Assembly (NCBI RefSeq): GCF_026151205.1
Contig: NC_087076.1
Location: 3,743,902 to 3,807,901, forward strand
DNA length: 64,000 nucleotides
Source of the DNA: Bolinopsis microptera
Taxonomy: Eukaryota; Ctenophora; Tentaculata; Lobata; Bolinopsidae
Reading direction: 5' to 3'
The notes under the pieces: model-generated
Told to the model about the DNA's origin: nothing
Database searches by the model: none
What the model saw: the letters and a program-made list of their open reading frames with translations, nothing else
Part shown: one piece after another, positions 1 through 64,000 of the stretch
Layout of the letters: every line of letters begins with the position of its first letter
Numbering within the stretch: the first letter of the stretch is position 1
Program-made: the position numbers and the translations under genes

Positions 1-388
1 GAGCCAAGAAGAGTAGCAAAATAGTCCTTCCATTCTGAACCCTTTCCGATGTGATTTCCCTTGATTTTGCCAGTATATGATGGGACTTTACCTGTGATTC
101 TGTTTGATCATGGGTCCAGCTTTTAGCATGTCTGCCCCCAAGCTTGCTTCTCCAGTTCCCGAACCTGCCCCTCCAGCAGTGGCTCTTTGCGGCTGATTGA
201 TAAGCATACGTGCCTACTTCTTTTGCCCCTCTTGAACAGCTAATCGGTTGTCCTTCTGTAGCACTGATGGTGTATTTTATCTACATTCCCTCAGCTTCGA
301 GCCTCTCAATCTCAACAACTTGGAGTCCTGAGCATTTTACATCTTTTTCTTTTTCCCTTTACAGGTAGTAACAGTCGAGAATTGTCCC
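1..388 (-). mobile_element. LINE copy 0, partial: N-terminal linker end only
   Basis: The left window edge cuts this copy. What remains matches the 5' side of the truncated LINE seen in complete units: the stretch read on the minus strand as GNSPTERVQKW (around 20 to 70), then the EHLLEGQVREL linker (around 140 to 190), ending at the pyrimidine-rich block near 340 to 366. The reverse transcriptase motifs lie outside the window. The frame is broken by small indels. Confidence 0.9.
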
Positions 389-1380
389 CTACTACCCACT
401 TGAACTAACATTTATCAAGTTATGCGCCACCTACCCACTGACTAACATTTATCATGTTAAACGCGCCACTACCACTGACCTACCATTTACAGGTTTACAC
501 GCCACTACCAACTGAACTACCATTTTATCATGGTTACACGCCACTACCACTGAACTAACATTTATCAGGTTATGCGCCACTAACTCACTGAACTAACATT
601 TACAAGTATATGCGCCACTACCACTGAACTACCATTTATCAGTTACGCGCCACAGTGCCACTAACACTGAACTAACATTTATCAGGTTATGCCACACCAC
701 TCAACTAACATTTATCAGGTTATGCGCCACTACCACTGAACTAACATTTAACAGGTATGCGGCCACTTACACTGAACTAACATTTATCAGGTTTTACGAG
801 GCGCCACTACCACTGAACTAACATTAATCCAAGGGCATGTTACGCGCCACTACCACATGAACTAACATTTATCAGGTTTATGCGCCACTACCACTGAACC
901 TAACATTTATCACGTTACGCAACACTACCCACTGAACTAACATTTTAATCCAGTAATGCTACCATCTACCACTGAGACTACATTATCAGTTTATGCGCCA
1001 CGACCACTGCAACTAACATTTAATTCAGTTACGCGCCACTACCACTGCACTAACATTTATCACAGGTTACGCGCCACTAACCACTGAACTAACATTTATC
1101 CAGGTTATGCGCCACTACCACTGAACTAACATTTATCAGGTATGCGCCAGTTTTTTTTTTCTCAATTTCTACCACTGAAACTAACATTTATCATAGGTTA
1201 CGCGCCACTACCGACTTGAACTAACATTGTTATCAGGTTATGCGACCCTACCACTGAACTAACAGTTATCAGGTTATGCGTCACTACCACTGAACTACCA
1301 TTTATCCAGGTTATGCGGCCACAACCTCTGAACTACCATTATATCCAGGTTATCTGCACTACCACTACTCCAACTATGTC
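389..1380. repeat. Minisatellite block 1 (36-bp monomers)
   Basis: About 25 direct repeats of a 36-base monomer. Its key blocks on the plus strand are GCGCCACTACCACTGAAC and ACATTTATCAGGTTA. Monomers 3 and 4 carry the ACCATTT and TTACACGCC variants. The ACAGGCC landmark is present in damaged form near 648 to 662. The block ends with GCGTCAC, a CCTCTGAAC monomer and an ACTACTAC tract. A run of ten T with flanking TCTCAATTTCT (1150 to 1170) interrupts one monomer here and in no other block. Confidence 0.97.
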
Positions 1381-3360
1381 GGAGCTAAGTCCGATCTACG
1401 CCAGAAAACCCCCTCCATATATCCTGTCCCGCATCAGGGTTCGAAGTTCCACATTATGAGATTGTCCCAACATCCTTCAGTAAAATGACAGTAGCATTGT
1501 CTTGGTCGGCCTTGCAGTGCTTCTATCCGTGCGTAGGTCCCTAAGACTAAATCACTGGCAAGTAGCTCAGGATGTCGATGCCAGTGTCCCGCCATTTTTA
1601 ATATCTCCTGCTTCGTAAACTTGTTTGACAGCACTTGGGAGTCTCCCATACAAATTATATTGCAGACCTTGTCCTTCCATGAGATACCCAGCCAACCATA
1701 CGCAACACTTTGTGTATGTCCCGTCCAACATTTTCTACTTGAGCCATTGTCCAGTGTCCCAGGTTTCTGATCCGTAGAGCAAGTAACTGATTCACAACCG
1801 CTATGAACAAACAAATCATTAGAGGCTCTTGGAGAGTTGGATTTCCCAGATATCCCTTCAGTCTATGTAGGGCACCCCGACGCTTTTCCTTTCTAACCCT
1901 TATCACCCTATCTGTGCATCTCAATCCAGGAACCTAAGTAGATGAAATCATCTACATTTTCTATGGCTTCCCCGATCGACTTTGTAGGTCGCTAGATCGA
2001 TCTCCCATATTCAGTGTCCCAGGACCTTGTCTTGCCTTTCTTTAATGTGTAGTCCCACGCTTTGCTGCCGCCGAATCTTCTCTGAGCAGGAAACTCGTTA
2101 GCCTGTCCATGTCCTCAATATAAGTGCTATATCATCTGCAAGTCCACAACGGTGATGACTGGGCCCCACTTCTTCTCTTATTCTACGTTTCGAGGGATGG
2201 ATCCAAGTCGCCCCGCATCATCCCCTATGGCTGTGCCTCAACAGTAGTCGAGACTATTGCACAGAAGGTTAAGGTGCTAAGGTAATCACCCTGTAACACA
2301 CCTGCCAGTATCTCGACAATTCAGTCTTTACTTCTCTCCGTCTGGAGTTTAGGACTTAGGCATTGTCTTCTCGTACATGACCGTATAAGCTGCACGATTT
2401 TGACTGGAAATGCCGTTAGCTTCTAGAATCGTTAGCATTTTCCCCCACGATTTACACTGTCGAAAAGCCTTCTTAAAGTCTATAAATGTCAGGAACCAGC
2501 TGGCCATTTATCCGAACTCTACACCCTCTATAAGACGTCCAGTACCAAAACCTGTTGATTTGTTGACCCTCCTGGTCTGAATCCATTCTGTTTCTACGCA
2601 GAATTGGTCTCGATATTCTGGCTTCAACCGGTTTAGAACCATCTTGTTTTAGAGACTTGCAACTAGGGATGACAAGCTATTCCCGAATAGTTCATATGTT
2701 TTCGCTAAGGACGCCCTTCTTTGGAATTGGTATGATGTTGGCAGTTGACCATTGGTCTGGTTTCTCACCTTTCAATAGAGCATTGTTACAGAAGTCTAAG
2801 ACAATTTGACTCAAGGTCGCATCTTTTAAGACTTCTGGAGGCTATGTTGTCGTCACCCCATGCTTTCCCTTCCTTATGCAGACTTGCCTTTCCTGTACCA
2901 TCCAAACGTAAACGGTTCTGTTCCGAAATTCAGATTTGGGTGGACTGGACAAATATCCCTCTTCCGCGTTCACTACCGTCGGTTGGTGAGCCAGAAGATT
3001 AGCAAAATAGCTTCCATGTCTGATCCCTTTCGTTGGTGAGTTTTTCCCTTGATTTTGCCAGTATATGATGGAGCTTTACCTTGATCTTGTGGATCATGTC
3101 CAGCTTTTTAGCATGTCAGCCCTGCCAACTTGCTCTCCATTCCCGTACCTGCCCCTCCACCAGCGGTGCTCTTTGTGGCTGCTTGATAACTCGCCTACTA
3201 TCTGTATTGCCCTCATGAACAGCTATTCGGTTGTCATCCTGTAGCATCTGGAGTGGTATTTTATCTACATTCCCTCAGCTTCATCCTGCAACTTCAACAC
3301 TTGGAGTCGTGAGATTTTACATCTTTCTTTTCTCCTTTTCAGGTAGTAAAAGTCGAGAAG
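1381..3360 (-). mobile_element. LINE copy 1: 5'-truncated non-LTR retrotransposon, RT plus C-terminal region
   Basis: Reference description for all copies. On the minus strand the unit consensus reads about 640 codons. In order: a basic/linker region (residues about 1 to 150, with EHLLEGQVREL and GNSPTERVQKW); reverse transcriptase (about 155 to 500) with NYRGISL, NGFRPGRST, FIDFKKAFD (motif A, first catalytic Asp), GVLQGDTLAP (motif B), FADD (motif C, catalytic Asp pair), NEGKTKVM and YLGS; then a C-terminal region with MAGHC, ASDLVLWEPTHG and DRDIWRGFSGVDRT followed by TAG. The enzyme copies element RNA into DNA at the target site. The apurinic-type endonuclease that should come first is absent, as after 5' truncation. 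In this copy the KAFD codons lie at about 2461 to 2488 and the FADD codons at about 2131 to 2145, where two bases are missing. Readable pieces include MAGHWHRHPELLASDLVLG (within 1434 to 1814) and ALHRLKGYLGN (within 1655 to 1924). Clade (RTE-like or jockey-like) is uncertain. Confidence 0.93.
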
Positions 3361-4324
3361 TTTCCTACTACCACTTGAACTAACATTTAGCAGGTTATGC
3401 GCCACTACCACTGAACTAACATTTTATCAGTTTACGACCCACATACCAGAACTATCCATTTATCAGTTACACGCCACTACCACGAAACTACCATTTATCA
3501 GGTTACACGCCACAACCACTGAACTAACATTTATCAGTTACGCCACTACCACCTGCAAACTAACATTTATCAGTTATGCGCCATACCACTGAACTCCAAT
3601 TATCAGGTTAACGCGCGCCACAGGCCCACTACCACTGAACTAACAATTATCAGGTTATGCCCACTAATACCACTGAACTAACATTTATCAGTTATGTCCC
3701 ACTAACTCACTGAGACAACATTTATCAGTTATGCGCCACTTACCACTGAACTAAACATATTATCAAGGTTACGCAGCCACTACCACTGAACTAAACATTA
3801 ATCAGGTTACGCGCCACTACCTACTGAACTAACATTTATCAGGATTATGCGCCACTACCACTGAACTAACATTATTATCAGGTTACCCACCACTACCACT
3901 AGTAACTAACTTTTTATCAGGTTATGCGCCACACCACTGAACTAACCTTTATCAGTATATGGCTGGCCACTACCTACTGAACCATAACATTTTATCAGGT
4001 TACGCGCCACTACCACAGACTAACATTATCAGGTTACGCGCCACGACCCTGACTAACATATATCAGGTATGCGCCACTACCACTGAACTAACAATATCAG
4101 GTTATGCTCCACTACCACAGAACTAACATTATCATTTACGCGCCCACCTACCACTGAACTACATTTATCAGGTTATGCGACACTACACTGAACGAACATT
4201 TATCAGGTTATGCGTCACTACCCTGAACTACCAGTTAACAGGTTTATTGCGCCACTACCTCTGAACAAAAAAACCCCAAAATTTCTCAGTGCTATCTGCC
4301 ACAACCACTACTATTCTACTATTG
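3361..4324. repeat. Minisatellite block 2 (36-bp monomers)
   Basis: Same monomer order as block 1, with the ACAGGCC landmark at about 3617 to 3630. Near 4262 to 4290 the last monomers are disturbed by an A/C homopolymer stretch (AAAAAAACCCC then AAAATTTCTCAGTG) where other blocks read ACTACCATTTATCAGG. This looks like a local base-calling failure. Confidence 0.96.
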
Positions 4325-6327
4325 TCGGAGCTAAGTCCGTCTACGCCAGAAAAACCCCCTCCATATATCCCTGGTCCCGCATCAGGGTTCGCAGTTTCCT
4401 CTTAGAGTTTTGATCCCAACTCCTTCATAACTAGACAAGTAGCCTTTGTCTTGGTCGGCCTTTCGTGCTCTACCGTGCGTAGGTTCCCATAAGAACTAAA
4501 TCACTGGCAAGTAGCTCAGGTGTCGGATGCAGTGTCCTCGCCATTTTTTAATCACCAGCATCGTAACTTGTTTGACAGCCTTGGTAGGCTACCATATCAA
4601 ATTATATAGCTGACCTGTCCATCATGAGATACCCGCACCATACGCAACATCATTGTGTAATGTCCCTCCCAAACTTATTTTCTTCTTGACCTTTGTCCAG
4701 TTCCAGTGTTGTTTCTGATCCGTAAGCAGTACTGATTCACAAGCCGCTATGAACAATCTAATCTTTAGGCTCTTCTTTGAGACTTTGGATTTTCCAGATA
4801 ATCCATCTAGTCTATTGTAGGGCACCCCACGCTTATCCCATTTCAACCCTTATCTCCCTATCTGTGCTCTCAATCCAGGAGCGCTAAGTCTATAAATCAT
4901 CTACATTTTTTCTATGCGTTCCCGGATCGACTTTGAAGGTCGCTAGATCGATCCTCCATATACATGTCATGACCTTGTCTTGCCTTCGTTTATGTGTAGT
5001 CCCACGCTGGCTGTCCGCCGTTCTACTCCGACAGGAACTCGTTAGCCTGTCCATGTCCTCAGATATAAGTCTATATCATTCTGCAAAGTCCACATCGTGA
5101 TGATCTTGGGCCCCACACCTGCTTTTTCTACGTTCGGAGGGTGAGTCCAAGTCGGCTCCGCATCATCGCCTATGGCTTTCCTCAATACAGTAGTCTATGA
5201 CTATTGCAAAGAGTAAGGTGCTAAGTTATCACCCTAACACACCTGCAATATCACGAACAATTCAGTTTCTCCGTCTGGAGTTAGGAACTTTGTGCCATGT
5301 CTTCTCGTACATGAAGGCCGTATAAGCCGCAACGAATATTGACTGGAATGCCGTAATCTTTCTAGAGAATCTTTAGCATTTCCCACGATGATACAACTGT
5401 CGAAAGGCCTTCATAAAGTCTTATAAATGTCAGAACAGCTAGGCCGTTTCCGACTCTTTGACACCCTCTAAAAAGACGTCTCAGTACCATATCTGTTGAG
5501 TTGTTGAACCTTACCCTAGTCTAGAAATCCATTCTGGTTTCTACGCAGAATTGGTCTCGATTCTGGCTTCAACCGTTTAGAACCATCTTGTTAGAGACTT
5601 GGCAACTAGGGATGACAAGCTTATTCCCCGATAGTTCATTGGTTCGCTAAGTATCGCCCTTTCTTTGGAATTGTTATGGATGTTGGCAGTTGACCATTGG
5701 TCTGGTTTCTCACCTTTCAATAGAGCAATGTTACAGGAAGTCTAAGTCAAATTTATCAAGGTCGCATCGTTAAAGACTTCTGGGGCTATGTGTCGTCAAC
5801 CCATGCTTTCCCTCCTTTAATCTGGACTTTGCTTTACCTGAACTCATCCAACGTAAACGGTATCTGTTTCCGATATTCAGAGGATGGTGACTGGATCAAT
5901 ATCACTCTTCCGCGTTTCTCACCGTCGGTGGTGAGCCGAGAAGAGTAGCAAAATAGTCCTATCCATTCTGAACCCTTCCGTTTGGTGAGTTTCCCTTGAT
6001 TTTGCCATTATATGATGGAGCTTTTACCTGTGATCTTGTTATCATTTGGTCCAGCTTTTAGATGTCTGCCCTGCAACTTGCTTTCCTCCGAGTTCCCACG
6101 GACCTCCTCCTCCACAGTGTGCTCTTTGGCTGCGATGATAAGCACTCGCCTAGCTTTCAGTTTAGCCCCCTTGAAACACTATTACGTTGTCTTCTTACAT
6201 CTGAGGGGTATTTTTTATGCTACATTACCCCCCTCAGCTTCAGCCTTGGCAATCTCAACACTTTGGATCAGTGAGATTTTACATCTTTTCCTTTTTCACC
6301 TTTCAGGTAGAAAAAGTCGAGAAGTTG
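4325..6327 (-). mobile_element. LINE copy 2 (truncated, frameshifted)
   Basis: Landmarks on the minus strand: FADD codons about 5073 to 5091 with an extra T inside the motif, KAFD codons about 5401 to 5430. The longest readable C-terminal piece is SKKSLKIRLFIAACESVLL (within 4622 to 4846), the region just after the reverse transcriptase fold. Plus-strand frames of 124 and 70 codons at 6012 to 6386 lie across the linker and block 3 and are shadows. Confidence 0.93.
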
Positions 6328-7279
6328 TCCTACTAACCACTGAACTAACATTTATCAGGTTATGGACGCCACTACCACTGAACTAACATGTTACTCAGGG
6401 TACGCGCCACTACCCACTGAACTACCATTTATCGGTTACAAACGCCACTACCACTCACTGAAACTCACCATTTATCAGTTACACCCACTACCACTGAACT
6501 AACATTTATCAGGTATGCCCACTACCACTGAACAACATTTAACAGGTTATAGCGCCCCTACCGACTGAACTACCATTTATCAGGTTACGCGCACAGGCCA
6601 CTACCACTGAAACTAAACATTTTCAGTTATGCGCCCCTAACCACAGAACTAAACAATTTCAGTTTATGGCCGCCACTACAATGAACTACCATTTATCAGG
6701 TTATGCCACAACCTCTGAACTAACATTTATCAGGTTACGCCCACTACCACTGACAACTAACATTAATCAGTTACGCGCCACTACCACAGACTAACATTAA
6801 TCATTAATCGCCACTACCCTCTGAAACCTAACATTTATCATGTTACGCCACACACTCCCACTGAACTAACATTTTATCAGTTATGCGCCACTAACACTGA
6901 ACTAACATTTATCAGTTATGCGCCACTAACCACTGAAACTAACATCTTTGTCAGTTACGCGCCACTACCACTGAACTAACATTTATCATGTTACGCGCCA
7001 CTACCACTGAACTACATTTACAGGTTTATGCGCCATCTAACCACTGAACTAACATTATATCAGTTATGCGCCACTACCACTGAACAACATTTATTCAGGT
7101 TACGCGACCACTACCACTGAGAACTAACATTTATCAGGTTATGCGAGACAACCACTGAACTAACATTTATCAGTGGTTTATGCGTCACAACCACTGAACT
7201 ACATTTATCAGTTATGCTGCCACACCTCTGAACTACCAAATATCAGGGTTATCTGCCATACCACTACTACTACTATGTC
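6328..7279. repeat. Minisatellite block 3 (36-bp monomers)
   Basis: ACAGGCC landmark at about 6588 to 6600. The TTACACCC variants are in monomers 3 and 4. The block closes with GCGTCAC, then the CCTCTGAAC monomer, then ACTACTACTACTATGTC. There are no foreign bases. Confidence 0.96.
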
Positions 7280-9265
7280 GGAGCTGAAGTCCGATCTACG
7301 CCAAAAACCCCCTCCATATAAACCAGGAGGTTGTCCCGCATCAGGGTTCGCAGTTCCCTCATTAAGTTTTCCCAACTTCCCGTTCAGAACAAATACAGTA
7401 GCTTTGTCCTTGTCGGGCCTTGCGTGCTCTAAAACGTGCGTAGGTTCCCATAAGACTAAATCACTGGCAAGTAGCTCAGGAATTCGGATGCAGTTTCCCG
7501 CCATTTTTAATCTCCTGCCTTTACAGTCGTAACAATGTTACAGCCCTTGGGAGCTACCAGTACAAAGTTATTATTGCTGACCTTTCCTTCCATGAGATAC
7601 CCGCACATACGCAACATCTTTGTTAATGTCCGGGGCGTCCAAACTTTTCTCTTATAGGCCTTTGTCAGTGTCCATTTCTGATCCTAGAGCAGTACTGATC
7701 ACAAGCCGCATAGAACAATCTAATCTTAAGGCTCTTTGAGGAGTTTGGATTCAGATACCTTCAGTCTATGTAGGTCACCCCACGCTTTCCTTTCTAACAC
7801 CTATCTCCCTATCTGTGCTCATCATCCAGAGCCAAAGTAGACGAAATCATCTACATTTTCTATGCTTCCCCCGATCGACTTTGTAGTCGCTATGATCGAT
7901 CCTCCATATTCAGTGTCATGACCAAGTCTTGCTTCGTTATGTTAGTCCCACGCTTGCTGCGCCGATTCTACTACTGAGCCGGAACTCGTTAGCCTTTCCC
8001 ATGTTCCTCAGATATAAGTGGCTATCCATGCTGCAAAGTCACATCGAGGAGATGAACTTGGGCCCCTCTTCTCTTTTTCTACGTTCAGGGAGTCCCAAGT
8101 CGCTCCGCAACATCGCCTATGGCTTATCCTCATACAGTAGTCGATGACTAATTGCAAAAGTAAGGTGCAAGGTATCTCACCCTGTAACACACCTCAAGTA
8201 TCCTGAACAATTCATTTCTCGTCTGTGATTAGGACTGGAGCCAATGTCCTTCTCCGTACATGAGCCGTATAAGCTGCACGATTTAGATGGAATGCCGTAA
8301 GCTTCTAGAATCTTTAGCATTTCCCACGATGTACATACTGTCGACAAGCTTCTTAAAGTCTATAAATGTCAGATACAGCTGGCAGTTTCCGACTCTTGAC
8401 ACCCTCTATAAGACGTTCAAGTAACAAATCTGTTGCGTTGTGACCTTCCCTGTCTAAATCCATCTGGTCTCTACGCAGAATGTCTCCGTATTTCTGGCTT
8501 CAACCGTTAAGAACCATCTTGTTTAGAGACTTGGCAACTAAGGATGACAAGGCTTTATTCCCCGATAGTTCATTGTTCGCTAAGGTCTCCCTTTTCTTGG
8601 AATTGTGATGATTGATTTGGCATGTTCTGAGACCATTGGTCTGGTTTCCACCCCTTTCAATAGAGCAATAGTTACAGAAGGCCTAAGACAATTTGATCAA
8701 GGTCGCATCGTTTTAAAAAGACTTCTGGGGCTATGTTGTCGTCACCCATCATTCCCTCCTTTATGCTGGACTTTTTTTCCTGTACTCATCAACGAAAAAA
8801 ACGGTTCTGTCCGATAATCAGAGGTGTGTACTGGATCAATATCCTCTTCCGCGTTCTCTACCGTCGGTGGTGAGCCGAGAAAGAGTAGCAAAATAGTCCT
8901 TCCATTTCTGAACCCTTTCCTGTTGGTGAGTTCCCTTGATTTTGCCAGTATAATTTATGGGGAGCTTTACCTGTGATCTAGTTGCTCAGTCCAGCTTTAG
9001 CATTCTGCCCTGCAACTTGCTTCCTCCAAGTTTCCCGGACTGCCCCTCCAGCAGGTGCGCTAATGGCTGCTTGATAAGCATCGCCCTAGCTTCTGATTGC
9101 CTCTTTGAAAACAACTATTCGGTGTCTTCAGTATCATCCTGAGTGAGTATGTTTTATGCTACATTCCCTCACTCAGCCTGGCAATCTCAACACATAGTGG
9201 AGTCTGCTGAGATTTTACATCTTTCTTTTTCTCCTTTTCAGGTATAAAAGTCGAAGAAGTTTAGT
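7280..9265 (-). mobile_element. LINE copy 3 (truncated, frameshifted)
   Basis: The best preserved C-terminus: the minus-strand frame at 7208 to 7504 reads GNCIRIPELLASDLVLWEPT, shifts frame, and runs past the LINE stop into the trinucleotide tract as a run of valines. FADD codons lie at about 8023 to 8042 (damaged) and KAFD codons at about 8341 to 8370, where the Phe-Asp codons carry an indel. Confidence 0.93.
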
Positions 9266-10220
9266 CCAACTACCACATGAACTAACATTTATCAGGTTAT
9301 GGCGCCACTACCACTGAACTAACATTTTAATCCAGTTACGCGCCACTACCACTGAACTACCATTATCAGGTACACGCCACTACCACTGAACTACCATTTA
9401 TCAGGTTACAACACCCACAACCACTGAACTAACATTTATCATGTTATGCGCCACTACCATTTGAACTAACTTTAGCAGGTTAGCGCCACTCACCACTGGA
9501 ACCTATACCCATATTATCAGGTTACGGCACAGGCCACTCACCAACTGAACTAACATTTATCAGGTATATGCTCCCACTACCAGCATGAACTAACAATTAT
9601 CAGGTATATGCGCCACTACCACTAACTAACATTTATCAGATTATGCCACCACTACCACTGACCTAACATTTATCAGGTTACGGCGCACTAACCACTGAAC
9701 TAACATAATCCAGGTTACGCGCCACAACCACTGAACTAACATTACAGGTTTATGCCCACTACCTACTGAACTAACATCTATCAGGTTACGCACCACTACC
9801 ACTGAACTAACATTTATGCAGGTTATATGCTCACTACCACTGAACTAAATTATCAGTTTATGCGCCACTACCAACTGAACAAACAATTATCAAGGTTACG
9901 CGCCACTACCACTGACTAACATTTATCAGGTTACGCGCCACTCTATCTACCACTGGGAACTAACATTTATCAGGTTATGCGCCACTACCACAGAACTAAC
10001 ATTTAATCAGGTTATGCGCCACTAACCACTGAACTAACATTTATCAGGTTACGAGCGCCACTACCACTGAACTAACATTTATCAGGTTAGCGACACAACC
10101 ACTGAATAACATTTATCATTATGCGTCACCTACCACTGAACTACATTTATCAGGTTATGCGCCACTAACCTTCGAACTACCATTTAACAGGTTAATCTGC
10201 CACTACCACTACTACTACTT
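9266..10220. repeat. Minisatellite block 4 (36-bp monomers)
   Basis: ACAGGCC landmark at about 9527 to 9536. The fourth monomer reads TTACAACACCC. The penultimate monomer has ACCTTCGAAC in place of ACCTCTGAAC. The right end is the ACTACTACTACTTGTCGG junction. Confidence 0.96.
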
Positions 10221-12197: not shown

Positions 12198-13130
12198 CTA
12201 CTACCACTGAACTAACATTTATCAGGTTATGCGCCACAACCACTGAACTATAACATTTATCAGGTTACGCGCCACTACCACAGAACTACCATAATCAGGT
12301 TACACGCCCTACCACTGAACTACCATATTATCATGTTTCACGCACTGCGCTACCACTGAACTAACATTTATCAGGTTATGCGCACGACCACTGAACTAAA
12401 CATTTATCAGGTTTAGCGCCACTACCACTGAACACCATTTATCAGTATAACGCTCCACAGGCCACTACTACTGAACTAACATTTTATCAGATATGCGCCA
12501 CACCACTGAACTAACATTTAACAGGTTATGCGCCACTACCACTGAACCTATAAACCATTTAGACAGTTAAGCGCCACTTCCACTGAACTAACATATATCA
12601 GGTTACGCGCCACTACCCACTGAACTAACAATAATCAGGTACGCGCCACTACCACTGAACTAACATTTATCAGAGTATGCGCCACTACCACTGAACTAAC
12701 TAGTTATCCATTACCACCACAACCACTGACTACCAATTATCAGGTTTATGCCCCCACTACCACTGACTAACATTTTCAGTATGCCCACTACCACTGAACT
12801 AACATATATCAGGATACGCGCCACTACTACGAACTCAACTTTTATACAGGTTACGCGCCACTACCACAGATAACTAACATTTATCAGTTATGCGGCCACT
12901 ACCACAGAACTAACATTATTCAGGTTATGCGCCACTACCACTGAAACTAACATTTATCAGGTACGCCCACTACACTGAACCTAGAACATTTATCAGTTAT
13001 GCACACTGACCACTTAACTAACATATATCCAGGTTATGCTCACTACCACTGAACTACCATTTAACAGGTATCGCCACAACCTCTGAACTACCAATTATCA
13101 GTTATCTGCCACTACCACTACTACTACTAT
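12198..13130. repeat. Minisatellite block 5 (36-bp monomers)
   Basis: ACAGGCC landmark at about 12455 to 12463. Monomers 3 and 4 show the TTACACGCC and TTTCACGC variants. The end tract ACTACTACTACTATGTCGG is clean and ends at 13133. Confidence 0.96.
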
Positions 13131-53223: not shown

Positions 53224-54203
53224 CTAACTACCACTGAACAAAACATTTATCAGGTTATGCGCCACTACCACTGAACTTACATTTATCAGGTTACAGCCCA
53301 CTACCACTGAACTACCATTTATTCCAAGGGTTACACGCACACCACTGAACTACCATTTTCAGGTTACACCCACTACCAGCTCGAACTACCCATTATCAGA
53401 GCTTATTGCTCCCTACCACTGAACTATCATATATCGCACCCCAGGCGTTATGCGCACTACCACTGAACTACCATTTATCAGGTTACGCGCCACAGGCCAC
53501 TTCCAACTGAACTACATTATCAGGTTATGCGCCACTACACAGCACTAACATTTATCAGGTATGCGCCACTAACCCCGAACTAACAATTATCAGTTATGCG
53601 CCACTACACTGAACTAACATTTATCAGTTTTACTCGCCACTACCACTGAACAAAACATTAATCAGGTTACGCGCCACTACCACTGAACTAACATTTATCA
53701 GGTTATGCGCCCACTACCACGAACTAACTTAGCAGGTTACGCACCACTACCACTGAACTAACATTTATCAGGTTATGCGCCATCTACCACTGAACATCAT
53801 TTATCAGGTTATGCGCCACTACCACTGAACTAACATTTATCAGTTGACTCGCCACTACCACTGAAACTAACATTTATCAGGATAACGCGCCACTACCACT
53901 GACACAAACATTTATCAGTTATGCCCCACTACCACTGAACTAACATTTTATCAGGTTATGCGCCACTACCACCTGAACTCAAACATTTATCAGGTTGACA
54001 GCGCCACTACCACTGACTAACATTTATCAGTTATGCGACACTAACCACTGAACTAACATTTTATCAGGTTTATGCTCATACACTGAGACTACCCATGCTC
54101 AAACCTCTACTACATATCCCCGTCGAGGCTCATAAACCACGCCACTACCTCTGAACTAACCCTTTATCAGGTTCTCTGCCACTACCACTAACTACCTACA
54201 CTC
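53224..54203. repeat. Minisatellite block 19 (36-bp monomers, locally rearranged)
   Basis: Among the longest blocks. The landmark is clean at 53485 to 53500. Just before it, 53420 to 53450 reads ATATCGCACCCCAGGCGTT, possibly a damaged extra copy of the landmark. Near 54075 to 54150 monomer order is lost in a stretch with CATGCTCAAACCTC and CCCCGTCGAGGCTCATAAAC, which I cannot match to any monomer. Confidence 0.94.
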
Positions 54204-56211
54204 TGTCGGTAGCTTAAGTCCGATCTACGCCAGAAAACCCCCTCCATATAATCCCTGTCCACAGCATTAAAAACAGGGTTCGCAGTTTCCTCTTTATATT
54301 TGTCCCAACTTCCTTCATAACATAGACCAAGGAGCTTTTTGTCTTGTCGGCCTTGCTGTCTCCTAACGTGCGTAGTTCCCATAAACTAAAATCACTTGCA
54401 AGTAGCTCATGATGCGATGCAGTTGTCCCGTCATTTTTAATCTCCATGCTTCGTAATTGTTTGACAGCCTTGGGAGGCTACCATACAAAGTTATTATTGC
54501 TGACCTGTCCTCCATGAATACCTCACCCATACATACGCAACATCTTTGTGTACCCGTCCAAACTTTTCTCTTGAGCCTTGTGTCAGTGTCCAGTTTCTGA
54601 TCCGTAGAGCATATACTGATTCCAAGCCGCTATGAACAATTCTAAACTTAGGTCTTTTCGAGCGTTTTGGCATTTCCAGATATCCTTCAGACTATAGGCC
54701 ACCCCAGCGCGTTTCCCTTTCTAACCCTATCTCCTCTCGTGCTCTCAAACCAGAGCCTAAGTAGATGAAAATCACTACAGTTTTCTATGGCTTCCTCCCC
54801 GGATCGACTTTGTAGACGCTAGATCGACTCCATATTCAGTGTCAGTACCTTGGTCTTGCCTCGTTATATGTGTAACCCACGCTTGCTGCCGCCGATTTCT
54901 ACACTGAGCAACTCGTTACCTTGTCCATTCCTCAGATATAAGTGCTATATCATCTGCAAAGTCCACAAACGGTGATGATCTTGGGCCCCACTCTTCTGCT
55001 TTTTCTACGTCGAGGGTGAGTCCAAGTCGCTCCGCATCATCGAGCCTATGGCTTGGCCTCAATACAGTAGTCAGATGACTATTGCAAAGAGTTAAGGTGC
55101 TAAGGTATCACCCTGAAACACACCTGCAATTATCTCGAACAATTTCAGTTTCTTCCGTCTGGAGTTAGGACTTTGGCCATTGGTCGTTCTCTTACATGAG
55201 CCGTATAAGCTGCACGATTTTGACTGGAATGCCGAAGCTTCTAAGAATCATTATAGCATTTTCCCCCACGATTTACACTGTCGAAAGCTCTTCTAAAGTC
55301 TATAAATGTCAAACAGATGGGACAGTTTCCGACTTACCTTGACACCCTCTATAAGACGACACAGTACCAATATCTGTGGAGTTTGTTGACCTTCCTGGTC
55401 TGAATCCATTCTGGTTTTCTACGCGTAATTGTCCGCGATTTCTGGCTTCAACCGGTTTAGAAACATCTTGTTTAGAGACTTTGCAACTAGGATGACAATC
55501 TTATTCCCCCGCGACAGCATTGGTTTACGTGCTAAGTCGCCCTTCTCCCTCTTGGAGATTGGTATGATGTGTCGGAGCAGTTGACCATTTGTCTGGTTTC
55601 TCACCTTTCACTAGAGCATTGATACGAATTCTAAGACAATTTGATCAAGGTCGCATCGTGTTTTAAAGACTTCGGGGCTATGTTTGTCGTCACCCCATGC
55701 TTTCCCTTCCGTTATGCTGGACTTTGCTTTCCTGTACTCATCCCAACGTAAACGGTTCTGTTTCCGAATTCAGAGGTGGGTGGACTGATCAATATCCACT
55801 CCGCTTTCTCTAACCGTCGTGGTGAGCCGAGAAGAGTAGCAAAATAGTCCCTCCATTTCTGAACCCTTTCCGTTGGGTGATTTCCCTTGATTTTGCCAGT
55901 ATATGATGGAGCTTAACCTGTACTGTTGATCATGGTCCAGCATTTAGCATGTCCCCTGCCCTGCCAACTTGCTCCTCACAGTTCCCGGACCTGCCCCTCC
56001 ACGCAGGTGCTCTTTGGCTGCTTGATAAGCATCGCCTAGCTTCTGTTTGCCCTCTTTGAACAGCTATTCGGTGTCTTTGTTAGCATCTGAGTGGTATTTT
56101 ATGCTACAATTCCCTCAGCTTCAGCCTGCAATCTCAACACTTGAGAGTCGCTGAGATTTTTTACATCATTTCTTTCTTTCTCCTCCTTTTCAGGTAGTAA
56201 AAGTCGAGAAG
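54204..56211 (-). mobile_element. LINE copy 19 (truncated, frameshifted)
   Basis: The minus-strand frame at 54188 to 54382 reads ETANPVFNAVDRDYMEGVFW, with a TTAAAAACAG disturbance at about 54266 to 54276 where other copies read GCATCAGGG. SLNKMFLNRLKPEIADN lies in 55419 to 55604. FADD codons at about 54949 to 54965 are intact. KAFD codons about 55281 to 55308. Confidence 0.93.
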
Positions 56212-57159
56212 TTGTCCTACTACCACTGAACTAACATGTTATCATGTTATGCGCCACTACCACTGAACTACATGTCACACAAGGTTACGCAGCCACTACC
56301 ACTGAAACTACATTTATCAGGTTACACGCCACGCAACCACTGAAACTACCATTTATCAGTAACACGCCACGACCACTGAACTAACAGTTATCAGGTTATT
56401 GCGCCCACTACCACTGAAACTAAACATTACAGGTTTTATGCGCACTACCACTAACTACATTATCAGGTTACGCGCCACAAGCCCCTTCCACTAACTAAAC
56501 ATTACTCAGTATGCGCCACTACCACTGAACAAACATTAATCAGGTTATAGCGCCACAACCACTGAAACAAACATTATAACAGGTTTTGCCACTACCACTG
56601 AACAAACATTTAACAGGTACGCGCCACTACCGACTGAGACTAACAATTAATCAGGTACGGCCACTACCACTGAACTAACATTTATCAGGTTATGCGCCAC
56701 TACCACTGAACTAACATTTTATCAGGTCACGCACCACTACCACTGAACTAACATTTATCAGTTATGCGCCAACTACCACTGAACTAACATTTAACATGGT
56801 TTATGCGCCACAACCACTGAACTAACATTTATCCAGGTTTCGCGCCACTACCACAGAACTAAACATTTTCACAGGTTACGCGCCACACCCACAGAACTAA
56901 CAATTTAATCAGGTTATCGCCACTACCGACTGAACTAACATTTATCGGTTATGCCCACTACCACTGAACTAACATTTATCAGGTACGCGCCACTACCACT
57001 GAACTAACATTTATCAGGATATGCGACACTACCACTGAACTAACATTTATCAAGGTATATGCGTCACTGACCACTGAACTACCATTTACAGGTATGCGCC
57101 ACGACCTCTGAACTCCGATTTATCAGTTATACTGCCCACAAAACCACTACTACTACTAT
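56212..57159. repeat. Minisatellite block 20 (36-bp monomers)
   Basis: ACAGGCC landmark at about 56470 to 56486, read as ACAAGCCCC. Monomer 2 has ATGTCACACAAGG in place of ATTTATCAGG. The closing tract is clean from 57146. Confidence 0.96.
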
Positions 57160-59166
57160 GTCGAGCTAAGTCCGATCTACCCAGAAAACCACTCCATATA
57201 TCCTGAATCCCCGCATCAGGGTTCGCAGTCCCTCCTCTTTAGAGTTTTTTCCCAACTACCTTCAGTAACATAGACAAGTACTTTGTCCTTGTCGGCCTTC
57301 TGACTCACCGTGGCGTAGGTTCCAAAAGACCTAAATCACTGCAAGTAAGCTCAGGATGTCGAGGATGAGTTGTCCCCTCCTTGTTTAATCTCCTGCTTCG
57401 TAACTTGTTTGAACAGCCTTGGAGGCTACCATACAAAAGTGTATAATAGCTTGACCATGTACTTCCAATGAGATACCCAGCACCAACGCAACTCTATGTG
57501 TATGTCCTCCAAACTTTTCTCTGACCTTTGTCATGTCCAGGTATCCTGATGCCTAGAGCAGTACGTGATTCACAACCGCTATGAACAAATCTAATTTGTA
57601 GCTCTTTGAGAGTTTTGGATTTCCAGATATCCTTCATTCTATGTAGGGCACCCCACGCTTTTCCCTTTCTAACCCTTATCTCCCTATCTGTGCTCTCAAT
57701 CCAGGAGCCTAATAGAATTAAATCATCTACATTTTCTATGGCTTCCCCCGGATCGACTTTGTAGGTCGCTAGATCGATCCTTCCATATTCAGTTCAAGGA
57801 CTAGGTCCTTGCCTTCGGTTTATGTGTAGTCCCACGCTTGTCTGCCGCCGAATCTACTCTGAGCGAGGAACTCGTCGTTAAGCCTTGTCATGTCCTCAGT
57901 ATATAAGTGCTATAAACATCTGCAAAGTCCAAATCGGTGATGAACTAAGGAGACCCCACTCTATGCTTTTTCTCTACGTTTCGAGGTGAGTCCAAGTCGC
58001 TCCGCATCATCGCCTATGGCTTGCCTCATACAGTATGACGCGATGACTAATGCAAAGAGTTAAGGTGACTAAGTAACAACCCTGTAACACACCTGCATGT
58101 ATCTCGAACAATTCAGTTCTCCGTCCTGGAGTTAGGACTTTGGCCATTGGTCTTCTCGTACATGAAGCCGTATAGCGGCACGATTTTTGACTGGTAATGC
58201 CGTAAGCTTCTAGAATCTTTACATTTCGCACGATGTACACTGTCAAAGCCTTCTTAAAGTCTATAAATATCAGAACAGCTGGCAGTTTTTCCCGACTCTT
58301 GACACCCTCTATAAGACGTCTCAGTAACCAATATCTGTTGACTGTTGACCTTCCAGTGCTGAATCCATTCTGGTAATTCTACGCAGAATTGTCTCGAATT
58401 CTGGCTTCAACCGGTATTAGAACCATCTTGTTTAGAGACTTAGGCAACTAGGGCTGACAAGCTTATTCCCCGATAGATTCATTGGTTCCTATTCGCCCTT
58501 TCTTATGGAATTGGTAATGATTTTGGCAGTTGACCATTGTCTGGTGATTACATCTCAACCTTTCAATAGAGTCTATTGTTAACAGAATTCTAAGACAATT
58601 TGAATCCAAGGTCGCATCGTTTAAAGACCTTCTGGGGCTATGTTGTCGTCACCCCATGCTTCCCTTCTTAATGCTGACTTTGCTTTCCAGTACTCATCCA
58701 ACGTAAACGTTCTGTTTCCGATTTTCAGAGGTGTAGGACTGGATCAATCTCCTCATGCCCGTTCCTCTTACCCGTCGTGGGTGGAGCCGAGAAGAGTAGC
58801 AAAATATCCTTCCATTTCTCGACCCTTTCCGTTGGTGATTTCGCCTTGATTTTGCCATAAAATGATGAGCTTTACCTGTGACTTGTTGATCAGGTCCAGC
58901 TTTTCAGCTGTCTGCCCTGCAACTGCATCCACCATTTCCCTGACTGCCCCTCCCAGCAGGTGCACTATGGCTGCTTGATAAGCCCTCGCCTCTACTTCAG
59001 TTGCCCCTCTTGAACAGCTATTCGGTTGTCTACTGTAGCATCTATGTATTTATGCTACATTCCCTCAGCATCACAGCCTGGCATCTCAACACTTGGAGTC
59101 GCTGAAAGAATTTACAATCTTTTCTTTTTTCTTCTCCATTTCAAGGTAGTAAAAGTCGATGAAGTT
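57160..59166 (-). mobile_element. LINE copy 20 (truncated, frameshifted)
   Basis: The minus-strand frame at 58007 to 58246 reads VKILEAYGITSQKSC, then FEIHAGVLQGCYLVTLTLCI, so part of motif B is visible in phase. FADD codons about 57915 to 57930. KAFD codons at about 58242 to 58270 have lost a base. The linker piece GEITNGKGREMEGYFATLLG is in 58768 to 58965. Confidence 0.93.
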
Positions 59167-60127
59167 GAGCCAAATACCACTGGAACTAACATTTATCAGT
59201 TTAGCGCACTACCACTGGAACTAACATTTTATCAGGTACGCGCCACTACCACTGAAACTACCATATAACAGTTACACCCACTCCCACTGAAACTACCATT
59301 TATCAGGTAACACGCCACTACCACTGAACTACCATTTATCAGTTTTGCGCCACTACACTGAACTAACATTTATCAGTTATGCTCCCACTCACACGGAACT
59401 ATACCATTATCAGGTACGAGCGCCCACAACGAGCCATACCACTGAACAAACTTTTATCAGGTTATCGCCACTTAAACCACTGAACTAACATTTATCAGGT
59501 TATGCGCCACTACCACTGAACTAACATTATCAGGTTATGGCTCCACTCCCACTGAACTAACTTTTTACACTTTATCAGGTTACGTCGCCACTACCACTGG
59601 AACAACAATAATCGAGTGTTACGCGCCACTACCACCTGAACAACATTTATCAGGTTTAATCGCCACTACCACTGAACTAACATTATCAGGTTACACACCA
59701 CTACCACTGAACTAACATTTATCAGGGTTATGCGCCACTACCACTGAACTAACATTTATCAGGTTATGCCCACTACCACTGAACTAACATTATATCAGGT
59801 TACGCTCCACTACCACTGAACTTAACAATTATCACAGGTTACGCGCCACTACCACTGAACTAACATTTATCAGGTTATGCGCCACTACCAACAAGAGAAC
59901 TAACATTTATTCAGGAGTTATGCGCCACTACCCACTGAACTAACATTTACAGGTTACGCGCCACTACCACTGATGCTAACACATTTATCAGGGTATCGAC
60001 ACCAACCACTGAACTAACATTCTATCAGTAATGCGACCTACCACTGAACTACCATTATCAGGTTATGCGCCACTACTCTGAACTACCAATTATCAGTAAT
60101 CTGCCACTAACCACTACTACTACTATG
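59167..60127. repeat. Minisatellite block 21 (36-bp monomers)
   Basis: ACAGGCC landmark at about 59420 to 59436, altered to ACAACGAGCC. A monomer near 59560 to 59575 reads CTAACTTTTTACACTTTATC, with part of the ACATTTATC segment apparently repeated. Confidence 0.95.
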
Positions 60128-62130
60128 TCGGGAGCTAATCCGATCTACGCCAGAAAACCCCCTCCATATATCCCTGTCCCGCTCAGGTTCGCGTAAATTC
60201 CTCTTTAGAGTTTGTCCCAACTTCCTTCCAGTAACATAGACAAGTAGCTATGTCTGAGTCGGCCTTGCTGTGCCTTCTACCGTGCTAGTTCCCATAATAG
60301 ACTAAATTTCACTGGCAAGTAGCTCATGGGATGTCGGATGCAGTGTCCCGCCATTTTATAATCACCTGCTTCGTAACTTTTGACAGCTTGGAAGCAACCA
60401 TACAAAGTTAATATTGCTGACCTTGTCCTTTCCCATGAGATACCCAGCACCATACGCCAACATCTTTGTTATGTCCCGCCAATCTTTTCTCTTGAGCCGT
60501 TGTCATGTCCAGGTTTCTGATCCCGAGAGCAGTACGATTCACAAGCCGCTATGACAATCTAATCTTTAGGCTCTTTGATAGTATGATTTCCAGATATCCT
60601 TCATCTATGTAGGCACCCCACGCTTTTTCCCTTTCAAACCTCTTATCTCCCTAGCTGTGCTCTCAATCCAGGCGCCTAAAAGATGAAATCATCTACATTT
60701 TCTATGGCTTCCCCGATCGACTTTGTAGGTCCGCTAGATCCGATCCTCCAATTCATGTCATGACCTTGGTCTTGCTTCGTTTATGTGAGTCCCCCACGCT
60801 TGCTGCCGTCCGATCTACTCTGAGCCAGAACTCGTTAGCCTTGTCCATGTCCCTTCAGGATAAAGTTCATATAATATCATCTGCAAATCCACATCGGTGG
60901 ATGAACTTGGCCCCACTCTTCTTGCTTTTTCTACGATCCGAGTGAGTCCAAGTCGCTCCGGCACATCGCCTATGGCATGCCTCATACAAGCTCGATGACT
61001 ATTGCAAAAGATAAGGTTGCTAATGTATCACCCTGTACAACACCTGCAAGTATCTCGACAATTCAGTTTCTCCGTCTGAGTTAGGACTTTGGCCATTGTA
61101 CTTCCTCGTAATGGAGCCGTATAAGCGCAACGATTTTGACTGGAATGCCGTAAGCTTCTAGAATCTTTAGCAATTTTTTCCCCACGATTACACTGTCGAA
61201 AGCCTCTTAAAGTCTATAAAGTCAGAACAGCTTGGCCAGTTACCGACTCTTAGACACCCTCTATAAGACGTCTCAGTACAATAACTGTTTGAGTTGTTTG
61301 ACCTTCCTGTCTGAATTCCCCCCATTCTGGTTTCTACCAGAATTGTCTCGATTCGGCTCAACCGTATAGAACCAAATCTTGTTTAGAGACTGGCTACTAG
61401 GGATGACAAGCTTATTCCCCATAGTTCATATTGGTTCGCTAAGTCGCCCCTTCTTTGGACAATTGTATGATGTTTGGCAGTTTGACCATTGGTCTGGTTC
61501 CTCACCTTTTACCATAGAGCAACGTACAGAATTCTAAGACAATTTGATCAAGTCGCATCGTTATAAAGAACTTCTGGGGCTATGATGTCGTCACCCATGC
61601 TCCCTTATCCTTTAGCGGACATTGCTTTCCGTACTCATCCAACGTACACGGTTCTGTTCCGATATTTCAAGGTTGTGTGGACTGGACAATATCCTCTTTT
61701 CCGTGTTGGGGTTCTCTACCGTCGGTTGATGAGCGAAAGAAGAGTAGCAAAATAGTCCTTCCATTTCTGAACCCTTTCCGTTGGCGGGATTTTCCCTTGA
61801 TTTCTCCATACCTATTTGATTGCTTTACCGGTAGATCTAGTGATCTGTCCACTTTTAGCATGTCTGCCCTGCCAACTTGACTTCCCTCCAGTTCCCGACC
61901 TGCCCCTTCCAGCAGTGCTTCTTTGGCTGCTTGATAAGCATCGCCTACTTCTGTTATGCCCTCATTGAACAGCTCTTACGTTGTCTTCTGTAGCATCTGA
62001 GTGGGTATTTTTATGCTACAACATTCCCTCGAGCTTCAGCCTGGCAATCTCAACACTTGTGAGGCGCTGAGATTTTACATCATCTCTTTTTCCCTCCTTT
62101 TCCAGGTAGTAAAAGTTCGAGAAGTTGTCC
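60128..62130 (-). mobile_element. LINE copy 21 (truncated, frameshifted)
   Basis: Last complete copy. FADD codons about 60876 to 60891, KAFD codons about 61195 to 61220. The linker is read at 61612 to 61861 (KGKSRQRKGFRNGRTILLL, out of the true frame). Extra GGGG near 61708 and an altered AGTATATGATGG segment near 61805 to 61822 are private to this copy. Confidence 0.93.
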
Positions 62131-63061
62131 GAACTACCACTAAACTAACATTTATCAGGTTATGCGACCACTACCACTGAACTAACATTTATCAGTTACG
62201 CGCCACTACCACTGAGAACTACCATTTATCAGTTACACGCCACTACCACTGGAACTATCCTTTTATCAGGTTACAACGCCACTAACACTTGAACTAACAT
62301 TTATCAGGTTATGCGCCACTACCACTGAACTAACAATTATCAGGTTATGCTCCACTACCACTGAACAACCATTTATCAGGTTACGCGGCCACAGGCCACT
62401 ACCACTGAACTAACATTTATCAGGTTATCGCCACTAAACCACAGAACTATCCATTTTCAGGTTATGCGCCACTACCACTGAACAACATTTATCAGTTATG
62501 CGCCACTACCACTGAACTAACATTTATCAGGGTTACGCGCCACTACCCACTAACTAACATTAATCAGGTTACGCGCCACTACCACTGAACAAACATTTTA
62601 TCAGGTGTTATCGCCACTACCACTGAACTTAACATTTATCAGGTTACGCAACCACTACCACTGAACTAACATTTATCAGGTTATGCGCCACTACCACTGA
62701 ACTAACATTTATCAGGTTATGCCCACTACCACTGAACTAACATTTATCGGTTTACGCCGCCACTACCACTGACTAACATTTATCATTTACGCGCCACTAC
62801 CACTTAACTAACATTTAAATCAGGTAATCCGCCACTACCACTGAACTAACATTTACAGTATGCGCCACTCCACTAACAACATTATCAGGTACGCGCCACT
62901 ACCACTGAACTAAACATTTATCATGTTATGCGACACTCTACACTGAACTAACATTTATCAGTTATGAGTCACACCACTGAACTACCATTTATCAGGTTAT
63001 CGCCACTACCTCTGAACTACCATTTATCAGGTTATCTGCCACTACCACTACTACTAACTAT
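62131..63061. repeat. Minisatellite block 22 (36-bp monomers; clean reference)
   Basis: One of the cleanest blocks. I counted about 25 monomers. Monomers 3 and 4 have TTACACGCC-type ends. Monomer 7 carries GCGGCCACAGGCC (62380 to 62398). Monomer 14 has TTACGCAACC, monomers 22 and 23 have GCGACAC and GAGTCAC. Monomer 25 ends TTATCTGCC before the ACTACCACTACTACTAACT tract. Confidence 0.97.
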
Positions 63062-64000
63062 GATCGAGTGCTAAGTCCGATCTACGCCAGAAAACCCCCT
63101 CCATATATCCCTGTCCCGCATCAGGGTCGCCAGTATCCTCTTTAGGAGTTGTCCCAACTCTCTTCAGTCACATAGACAAGTACTTTGTCTTGGTCGGCCT
63201 TGCTGTGCTCAACCGTGCGTAGGTATTCCATTAGACTAAATCACTGCAAGTAGCTCAGGATGTCGAACGCATGTCCCGCGCATTTGTTAATCTCCTGCAT
63301 CGTAACATGTTTTGACACCTTGGAGGCTACCATACATAGGTTATATAGCTGACCTTGTGACCTTCATGAGATACCCAGCACCATACGCAACATCTTTGTG
63401 TATGTCCCGTCCAAACTTTTTCTCTTGAGCCCTTTGTCATTGGCGTCCTAGGTTTCCTGATCCGTATAGCAGTACATGATTCACAAAGCGCTATGAACAA
63501 CATCTAATCTTAGGCTCTTGAAAGTTGAGATTTCCAGATATCCATCAGTTCTATGTAGGGCACCCACGCATTCCCATTTTCTATAACCCTTATCGTCCCT
63601 ATTCTGTGCTCTCAAACCAGAGCCGAAAGTAGATGTAAATCATCTACCTTTCTAGCTTCCCGATCGAGACTGTAGGTCGCTAGATCGATCCTCCCCATAT
63701 TCAGTGTCCAGACCTTGGTCTTGCCTTCGTTGTATGTGTAGTCCCACGCTTGCTGCCGCCGATTCTACTCTGACAGGAAATCGTTAGCCTGTCATGTCCT
63801 CAGTTTAAGTGCAATAGCACTGCAAAAGTCCCACAATCGTGATGATCTTGGGCCCCACCTTCTGCTTTTTCCTACGTTCGAGGTAGTCCAAGTCGCCCGC
63901 ATCATCGCCATGGCTTGCCTCAGACAGTAGTCGATGAACTATTGGCAAAGAGGTAAGGTGCAAGGTATCACCTGTAACACACCTGCAAGTATCTCGAACA
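63062..64000 (-). mobile_element. LINE copy 22, partial: C-terminal half
   Basis: The right window edge cuts this copy just before motif A. Present are the C-terminal region (stop codon in GCTAAGTCC near 63070), the FIAACESVLL segment near 63470 to 63510, the VDDFIYLGS segment near 63600 to 63650, FADD codons at about 63814 to 63832 (damaged), and the GVLQGDT codons near 63955 to 63985, at the window edge. Confidence 0.92.

What the first reader, a model, noticed from the sequence alone, without database searches (positions are those of the whole stretch)
1..64000. LINE-plus-minisatellite macrosatellite with at least 21 head-to-tail units
Truncated LINEs are normally dispersed. Here one 5'-truncated copy and its adjacent minisatellite form a 2.94-kb unit repeated across the full 64 kb with no interruption. 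It may be a centromeric, pericentromeric or other heterochromatic satellite, or an extrachromosomal circular amplicon.
Basis: partly seen in the sequence, partly recalled or inferred. Interest (0 to 1): 0.75.

Follow-up and report, generated by a model that had tools for sequence, protein, structure and literature searches.

The report
Raw sequencing read pasted into assembly
The 64-kb repeat is really in the sequence, but it looks like part of one uncorrected long sequencing read that was pasted into three places of a comb-jelly genome assembly; that read covers the same 2.9-kb piece of DNA about 62 times, so it does not show a satellite array at this place in the chromosome.

Summary
In detail: about 21.8 head-to-tail units of about 2.94 kb, each a 5'-truncated LINE plus about 25 copies of a 36-bp minisatellite. 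A chromosomal macrosatellite at this place does not hold. Units differ by about 17%, but by star-like, indel-rich, strand-asymmetric noise. Over 40 units the LINE part has one fixed difference from a clean copy, and four of six clean copies carry the array's base. Minisatellite copy number fits one value best in 36 of 38 blocks; the other two hold insertions that look like read faults. The block fills C5:3630072-3811850; its noise recurs letter for letter, where checked, in nested pieces at C5:20.04-20.14 Mb and C6:13.07-13.14 Mb. Its LINE/minisatellite junctions were found nowhere else in the contigs held. Statistics and one glutamate receptor point to the ctenophore Bolinopsis microptera, assembled from PacBio CLR reads with TGS-GapCloser. 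Best reading: one raw read of at least 182 kb pasted into three gaps. Its template was a 2,894-bp circle (about 0.55) or a near-perfect long array (about 0.35). The only exact clean match of the minisatellite, C9:2474664-2474971 without LINE, is a candidate source.

The parts
1..64000 (.). interior part of the 181.8-kb noisy tandem block C5:3630072-3811850 (window = C5:3743902-3807901)
1..381 (-). LINE fragment, end of a unit cut by the window start
391..1366 (+). 36-bp minisatellite block 1; holds a read-type insertion at about 1151-1169 (run of T)
1361..3360 (-). LINE segment 1 (RT-coding part, 5'-truncated)
3367..4266 (+). minisatellite block 2
4304..6324 (-). LINE segment 2
6336..7265 (+). 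minisatellite block 3
7260..9259 (-). LINE segment 3
9269..10210 (+). minisatellite block 4
10205..12192 (-). LINE segment 4
12200..13119 (+). minisatellite block 5
13114..15104 (-). LINE segment 5
15113..16037 (+). minisatellite block 6
16037..18026 (-). LINE segment 6
18049..18972 (+). minisatellite block 7
18962..20958 (-). LINE segment 7
20966..21882 (+). minisatellite block 8
21877..23862 (-). LINE segment 8
23871..24794 (+). minisatellite block 9
24802..26810 (-). LINE segment 9
26820..27757 (+). minisatellite block 10
27747..29748 (-). LINE segment 10
29757..30685 (+). minisatellite block 11
30680..32674 (-). LINE segment 11
32673..33622 (+). minisatellite block 12
33605..35578 (-). LINE segment 12
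35591..36479 (+). minisatellite block 13
36506..38509 (-). LINE segment 13
38523..39445 (+). minisatellite block 14
39448..41425 (-). LINE segment 14
41436..42359 (+). minisatellite block 15
42356..44380 (-). LINE segment 15
44389..45336 (+). minisatellite block 16
45331..47337 (-). LINE segment 16
47348..48285 (+). minisatellite block 17
48284..50289 (-). LINE segment 17
50296..51217 (+). minisatellite block 18
51217..53219 (-). LINE segment 18
53227..54075 (+). minisatellite block 19; insertion-rich towards its right end, the block where one added copy scores better than none (block 103191)
54200..56211 (-). LINE segment 19
56219..57148 (+). minisatellite block 20
57143..59164 (-). LINE segment 20
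59175..60115 (+). minisatellite block 21
60110..62124 (-). LINE segment 21
62133..63049 (+). minisatellite block 22
63044..63997 (-). LINE segment 22, cut by the window end

Best explanation
The window is part of one raw, uncorrected long read (PacBio CLR type) of at least 182 kb that a gap-closing step pasted, in nested pieces, into three scaffold gaps (C5 twice, C6 once). The read covers one 2,894-bp template about 62 times on one strand: a 5'-truncated LINE set in a 36-bp minisatellite. Most likely the template was a circle (about 0.55): an extrachromosomal circle made by recombination between the minisatellite flanks of one LINE insertion (about 0.3), or a fragment self-ligated in the tube (about 0.25), copied lap after lap by the sequencing polymerase. 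A genuine, near-perfectly homogeneous long tandem array elsewhere in the genome is the other template (about 0.35). Shown: the noise structure, letter identity of the pastes where checked, the uniformity of units, no match of the junctions elsewhere in the contigs held. Inferred: that it was a single read, which program pasted it, and the nature of the template.
For: (1) Identical noise at distant places: L001 (C5:20111614-20116563) equals L002 (C5:3743782-3748731) in 4,950 of 4,950 letters; 1,450 of 1,450 letters at the right end of the second C5 block and 196 of 196 at one end of the C6 block; triplets of equal score at matching offsets. Extents are nested: C5 3630072-3811850; C5 20037819-20140149 = 3669987-3772317; C6 13069304-13141920 (minus) = 3672056-3744672. 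(2) Noise, not divergence: 40 LINE units against L003 give insertions 4.8%, deletions 3.7%, substitutions 2.4%; one fixed difference in 1,928 bp (38 of 40), and 4 of 6 clean copies carry the array's base there; longest deletion 3 bp. T>A 768 against A>T 77, deleted G 1,337 against deleted C 371; T>A exceeds A>T in 38 of 38 units examined, so one strand was read through the 118 kb held. Neighbours do not share more substitutions (1.68 at lag 1 against 1.86 over all pairs; permutation P 0.82), and no pair of variant sites is linked beyond chance (best P 0.0019 among 2,415 pairs). A burst of about 300 T stands in one unit outside the window. (3) Uniform template: 38 minisatellite blocks share one consensus with the same order of variants, no site with more than 7 of 38 sharing another base. 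The unchanged copy number scores best in 36 of 38; simulated one-copy changes were detected in 20 of 20 and unchanged ones kept in 20 of 20. (4) The two junctions of LINE and minisatellite match only inside the three noisy blocks: 12 of 12 and 17 of 17 places with up to 3 mismatches. (5) Host: 13 large contigs hold 97.5% of 264.65 Mb, the largest 26.2 Mb, as Table 1 of PMC11797021 gives for Bolinopsis microptera (265 Mb, 13 chromosomes, largest 26.2 Mb; passages); one receptor gene matches ML032222a, a ctenophore protein (recalled), best by far. PMC10232365 (section 12 read whole): PacBio CLR, Sequel II, wtdbg2, HiRise, TGS-GapCloser 1.1.1, pilon.
Against: No raw reads were available, so 'one read' is inferred. 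Of the main block about 118 kb was read in one piece, the rest only by probes; of the other two blocks only small pieces. In two of 38 minisatellite blocks one added copy scores better than none (by 20 and by 2 points); I judged both by eye to be insertion faults, which is not proof. In one search single alternative bases reach 9 of 38 units. If the gap closer anchored on LINE copies, each edge should have one nearby: the main block has one on each side, and the right-hand spacing fits the lap (983 against about 999 bp), but the left-hand one misses by about 200 bp, and no LINE or minisatellite match (E 1e-6) lies in the 9.6-11.8 kb held beyond the four edges of the other two blocks. Two of three receptor queries have kainate-receptor entries, not the ctenophore one, on top. 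The matching receptor is 72% identical, so it suggests a ctenophore, not the species. The share of bases in 13 chromosomes is 97.51% here against 97.23% in the paper, and 232 contigs are held here against 346 scaffolds in Table 1; the smallest length seen is about 10 kb (C232), so a clean junction on a short scaffold could have been missed. A standard PacBio template has hairpins and gives alternating strands, so a circle needs an unusual template.
Confidence: 0.9

Rival explanations
1. Template rival: a genuine chromosomal macrosatellite of this unit exists (about 60 or more near-identical copies), and a very long raw read of it was used to fill gaps. It arose by unequal exchange between minisatellite flanks of one LINE insertion and is young or kept homogeneous by concerted evolution.
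For: A linear tandem array gives same-strand head-to-tail reads without any unusual template. The LINE family is young (L004-L008 match L003 at 99.88-99.97%; these six are among the best-scoring of 41 matches, not a random sample), so a young array would be nearly uniform. In one of 38 blocks an added copy scores 20 points better. Satellites from retrotransposon-derived repeats are in print (PMC7004042, title and start of abstract only).
Against: One copy number fits best in 36 of 38 blocks of a 25-copy minisatellite; no junction match outside the noisy blocks; the same noise in all three gaps although a real array at over 70x would offer many different reads (inference); a same-strand read of at least 182 kb would be needed.
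Confidence: 0.35
2. Template rival: the circle existed in the living animal (eccDNA): LINE plus minisatellite looped out by recombination between minisatellite repeats.
For: The lap holds only LINE and minisatellite with both junctions and no foreign letters; a circle explains identical laps and a single strand.
Against: No direct test. Native sequencing of a circle without hairpins is unusual (Coupland et al. 2012 did it for small genomes: seen only as a reference entry; content recalled; paper not held). Self-ligation during library preparation would look the same.
Confidence: 0.3
3. The 10-17% differences are real: an old, diverged satellite array, present three times in the genome.
For: It is what the letters say at face value.
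Against: Star-like, indel-dominated, strand-asymmetric differences with a near-perfect consensus; letter identity of pieces 16 Mb apart and on another chromosome; a burst of T.
Confidence: 0.02

Closest known systems
Uncorrected long-read insert left by a gap closer (TGS-GapCloser type)
   Same: Raw-read noise between clean flanks, abrupt edges, the same noise at several places; the tool's paper says that inserted raw segments still need error correction (PMC7476103, passages).
   Different: The inserts are 73-182 kb and tandem; four of six edges have no LINE anchor in the 9.6-11.8 kb held beyond them.
Satellites derived from retrotransposons / macrosatellites
   Same: Kilobase unit holding retroelement sequence and an internal short tandem repeat (PMC7004042 and PMC3648361, search listings and starts of abstracts only).
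   Different: No detectable variation between units, no clean copy found, no single location.
Extrachromosomal circular DNA read as a concatemer
   Same: Identical laps, one strand, a circle closed through repeats.
   Different: Whether such native reads of circles are in print was not established here (listing only); section 12 of PMC10232365 mentions no amplification step.
Non-LTR retrotransposon (LINE) with endonuclease and reverse transcriptase in one frame
   Same: Exo_endo_phos and RVT_1 domains in the clean copy; named relatives in Branchiostoma, Strongylocentrotus and Acropora, most relatives unnamed (120 of 175 listed); tail of TAG repeats.
   Different: The copies in the window are 5'-truncated and broken by noise.

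Membership tests
Chromosomal macrosatellite | Head-to-tail kilobase units | tested here: met
Chromosomal macrosatellite | One consistent chromosomal location of its own | tested here: not met
   Same noise at three places; no junction match elsewhere in the contigs held
Chromosomal macrosatellite | Supported by several independent molecules | not testable with these tools
   no raw reads
Chromosomal macrosatellite | Unit-to-unit variation with neighbours more alike | tested here: not met
   lag-1 sharing 1.68 against 1.86, P 0.82; variants carried by few units would be hidden by the noise
Raw-read insert (gap-fill artefact) | Random indel-rich noise at raw-read level with strand asymmetry | tested here: met
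   (five of six complementary substitution pairs differ 3.3- to 10-fold, one 1.2-fold)
Raw-read insert (gap-fill artefact) | Identical noise at unrelated places | tested here: met
Raw-read insert (gap-fill artefact) | Anchors shared between read and both gap flanks | tested here: inconclusive
   Main block: LINE fragment on both sides, spacing fits on the right, not well on the left; other four edges none in 9.6-11.8 kb
Raw-read insert (gap-fill artefact) | Gap closing with long reads in the assembly's history | tested here: met
   PMC10232365 section 12, provided that the host is B. microptera, which rests on statistics and one receptor
Extrachromosomal circle | Every lap identical in sequence and copy number | tested here: inconclusive
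   one consensus for 38 blocks; unchanged copy number best in 36 of 38, the other two judged by eye as insertion faults
Extrachromosomal circle | Physical circularity | not testable with these tools
   needs exonuclease-resistant DNA or reads
LINE with endonuclease and reverse transcriptase | Both domains in one frame of a clean copy | tested here: met
   PF00078 3.1e-33, PF03372 1e-8, in L003

The most novel reading that the evidence does not exclude
A living ctenophore carries an extrachromosomal circle of 2,894 bp, made when recombination between minisatellite repeats looped out a fresh LINE insertion together with about 25 repeats, and a sequencing polymerase ran about 62 laps round it natively. 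Such circles could reinsert and seed LINE-plus-minisatellite satellites.
Probability: 0.3. Interest if true: 0.5.

Novelty: not a real feature. Interest (0 to 1): 0.25.

Why it matters
The host genome appears to be the Bolinopsis microptera reference of the ctenophore-sister synteny paper (PMC10232365). About 357 kb of it (182 + 102 + 73 kb) would be raw-read sequence in false places. Repeat annotation, satellite surveys and centromere guesses on C5 and C6 could be misled; the first-stage reader took it for a satellite. The artefact also preserves a useful molecule: about 62 passes over one template, from which the true unit can be read almost without error.

Tried and rejected
Real old satellite: rejected. 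Higher-order structure or polymorphism among units: none seen; the site with a G deleted in 21 of 40 units is a run of four G (runs of three G: 8 to 15 of 40), and its carriers do not cluster (P 0.22). A copy-number change in the unit with about 300 extra bp: it is a burst of T. A copy-number change in two of 38 blocks where an added copy scores better: looked at by eye, taken for insertion faults, not excluded. The C9 minisatellite as the same allele: related, exact 36-bp phase, about 8.6 copies, no LINE, not shown to be the source. Alternating-strand read of a hairpin template: rejected, the units found lie on one strand. Literature on this array: searches (11 papers listed; 15 of 5,388 listed), nothing on it in the listings, which does not show that it is unpublished.

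Full report
Observation. The window is tandem throughout: 36-bp minisatellite blocks of about 0.9 kb alternate with LINE segments of about 2.0 kb, 21.8 units of about 2.94 kb, in one orientation. The LINE is coded on the minus strand; a clean copy elsewhere (L003) has an open frame with endonuclease and reverse-transcriptase domains. The window is C5:3743902-3807901 of a 264.65-Mb genome in 232 contigs. The block starts at C5:3630072 and ends at about 3811850 in mid-LINE, about 62 units.

Nature of the differences. I aligned to L003 the 40 LINE segments of more than 1,850 bp in the 164 kb held (window plus 50 kb on each side); two shorter hits were left out. Differences are insertions 4.8%, deletions 3.7% and substitutions 2.4% of reference bases. 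One site is fixed (38 of 40); the clean copies L005-L008 carry the array's letter there, L003 and L004 do not. No other site has an alternative base in more than 8 of 40. The commonest deletion (21 of 40; the next commonest 14 of 40) is in a run of four G and its carriers do not cluster. The errors are strand-asymmetric: T>A is about ten times A>T in counts, and T>A exceeds A>T in 38 of 38 units. Of the six complementary pairs of substitution rates five differ 3.3- to 10-fold and one (T>G, A>C) hardly. Mutation in double-stranded DNA would not do this; a raw read of one strand would (inference). Insertions above deletions fits PacBio rather than nanopore (recalled).

Uniformity. Of 39 minisatellite blocks one was left out because it holds a burst of T. 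The other 38 agree on one 966-bp block with the same variants in the same order; the largest deletion is 4 bp, the largest insertion 19 bp, and no alternative base is shared by more than 7 of 38. Against 50 templates with one copy lost or gained, the unchanged template wins in 36 of 38; in the other two an added copy scores better by 20 and 2 points, and by eye they hold a stretch of junk and a run of T. Simulated one-copy changes were detected in 20 of 20. Over whole units, neighbours do not share more substitutions than distant ones (P 0.82), single alternative bases reach 9 of 38, and no two variant sites are linked beyond chance (best P 0.0019 among 2,415 pairs). Variants in few units would be hidden by the noise; the strand-symmetric share of substitutions gives only a loose upper limit of 0.96% per site.

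Three places. A second block at C5:20037819-20140149 and a third at C6:13069304-13141920 (minus) carry the same noise. Checked letter for letter: 4,950 of 4,950, 1,450 of 1,450 and 196 of 196. The three cover nested parts of one sequence. The two junctions of LINE and minisatellite match only inside these blocks (12 of 12 places, 17 of 17, up to 3 mismatches). Contigs under about 10 kb seem not to be held, so short scaffolds were not searched. Exact matches of a 35-letter minisatellite pattern lie in the three blocks (16, 8 and 6) and at C9 (4); the list of its inexact matches was cut. The C9 place, 2474664-2474971, has about 8.6 clean copies and no LINE.

How it came about. The host is most likely Bolinopsis microptera: 13 contigs of 15.2-26.2 Mb hold 97.5% of the bases, against 265 Mb, 346 scaffolds, 13 chromosomes and a largest of 26.2 Mb in Table 1 of PMC11797021 (passages) and 97.23% in PMC10232365 (passage). 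One of three glutamate-receptor queries matches ML032222a best (188 of 260 residues identical); the other two have kainate-receptor entries on top, with ML032222a lower in one list and not among the 60 shown in the other. That ML stands for the ctenophore Mnemiopsis leidyi is recalled. The published assembly used PacBio CLR, wtdbg2, HiRise, TGS-GapCloser and pilon (PMC10232365, section 12 read whole). TGS-GapCloser takes read segments between alignments to the two neighbouring scaftigs, and its paper says that inserted raw segments still need correction (PMC7476103, passages). Around the main block an older LINE fragment lies on both sides; its distance to the right edge (983 bp) fits the lap of the read (about 999 bp), while the left distance (7,903 bp) misses by about 200 bp, and beyond the other four edges no LINE was found in the 9.6-11.8 kb held. 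So the paste is well supported; how it was anchored is not settled.

Template. The read covers the same 2,894 bp about 62 times on one strand. A hairpin template would alternate strands. A circle without hairpins explains identical laps; a real array explains the strand without an unusual template. Near-identical minisatellites in the laps, no junction match in the rest of the contigs held, and the same noise in all three gaps favour the circle. In the consensus the LINE has minisatellite on both sides, and the nine bases ACTACCACT stand at both edges, as a target-site duplication or pairing with the LINE tail would leave (by eye). Recombination between such flanks could release exactly this circle, or start an array. 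This step is inference.

Verdict. The pattern is real in the letters; the chromosomal macrosatellite at this place is not supported. Interest is low as a biological finding, moderate as a warning about a reference genome and for the molecule behind the read.

Noticed in passing
L003-L008 (C10, C5, C12, C9, C9, C8): A young LINE family: L004-L008 match L003 at 99.88-99.97% over 2.35-3.45 kb, with an open frame in L003 (the others not checked). These six are among the best-scoring of the 41 matches, which is a lower bound and includes two noisy units.
   Followed up: partly
L003:3450-3764: A different tandem repeat (about 43-bp unit by eye) directly follows the TAG tail of this LINE copy, so this LINE stands beside a minisatellite at another place too.
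   Followed up: no
L061 (C9:2474664-2474971): The only exact clean matches of the 36-bp minisatellite outside the noisy blocks, about 8.6 units at 98% match, without a LINE.
   Followed up: partly
C5:3620954-3622790 and C5:3812646-3814488: The two flanks of the main block share a 1.87-kb stretch at 95.3% identity that contains an older LINE fragment truncated at the same point.
   Followed up: partly
C5 about 3709.3 kb, left of the window: A burst of about 300 T with scattered other bases inside one minisatellite block, like a raw-read fault.
   Followed up: yes
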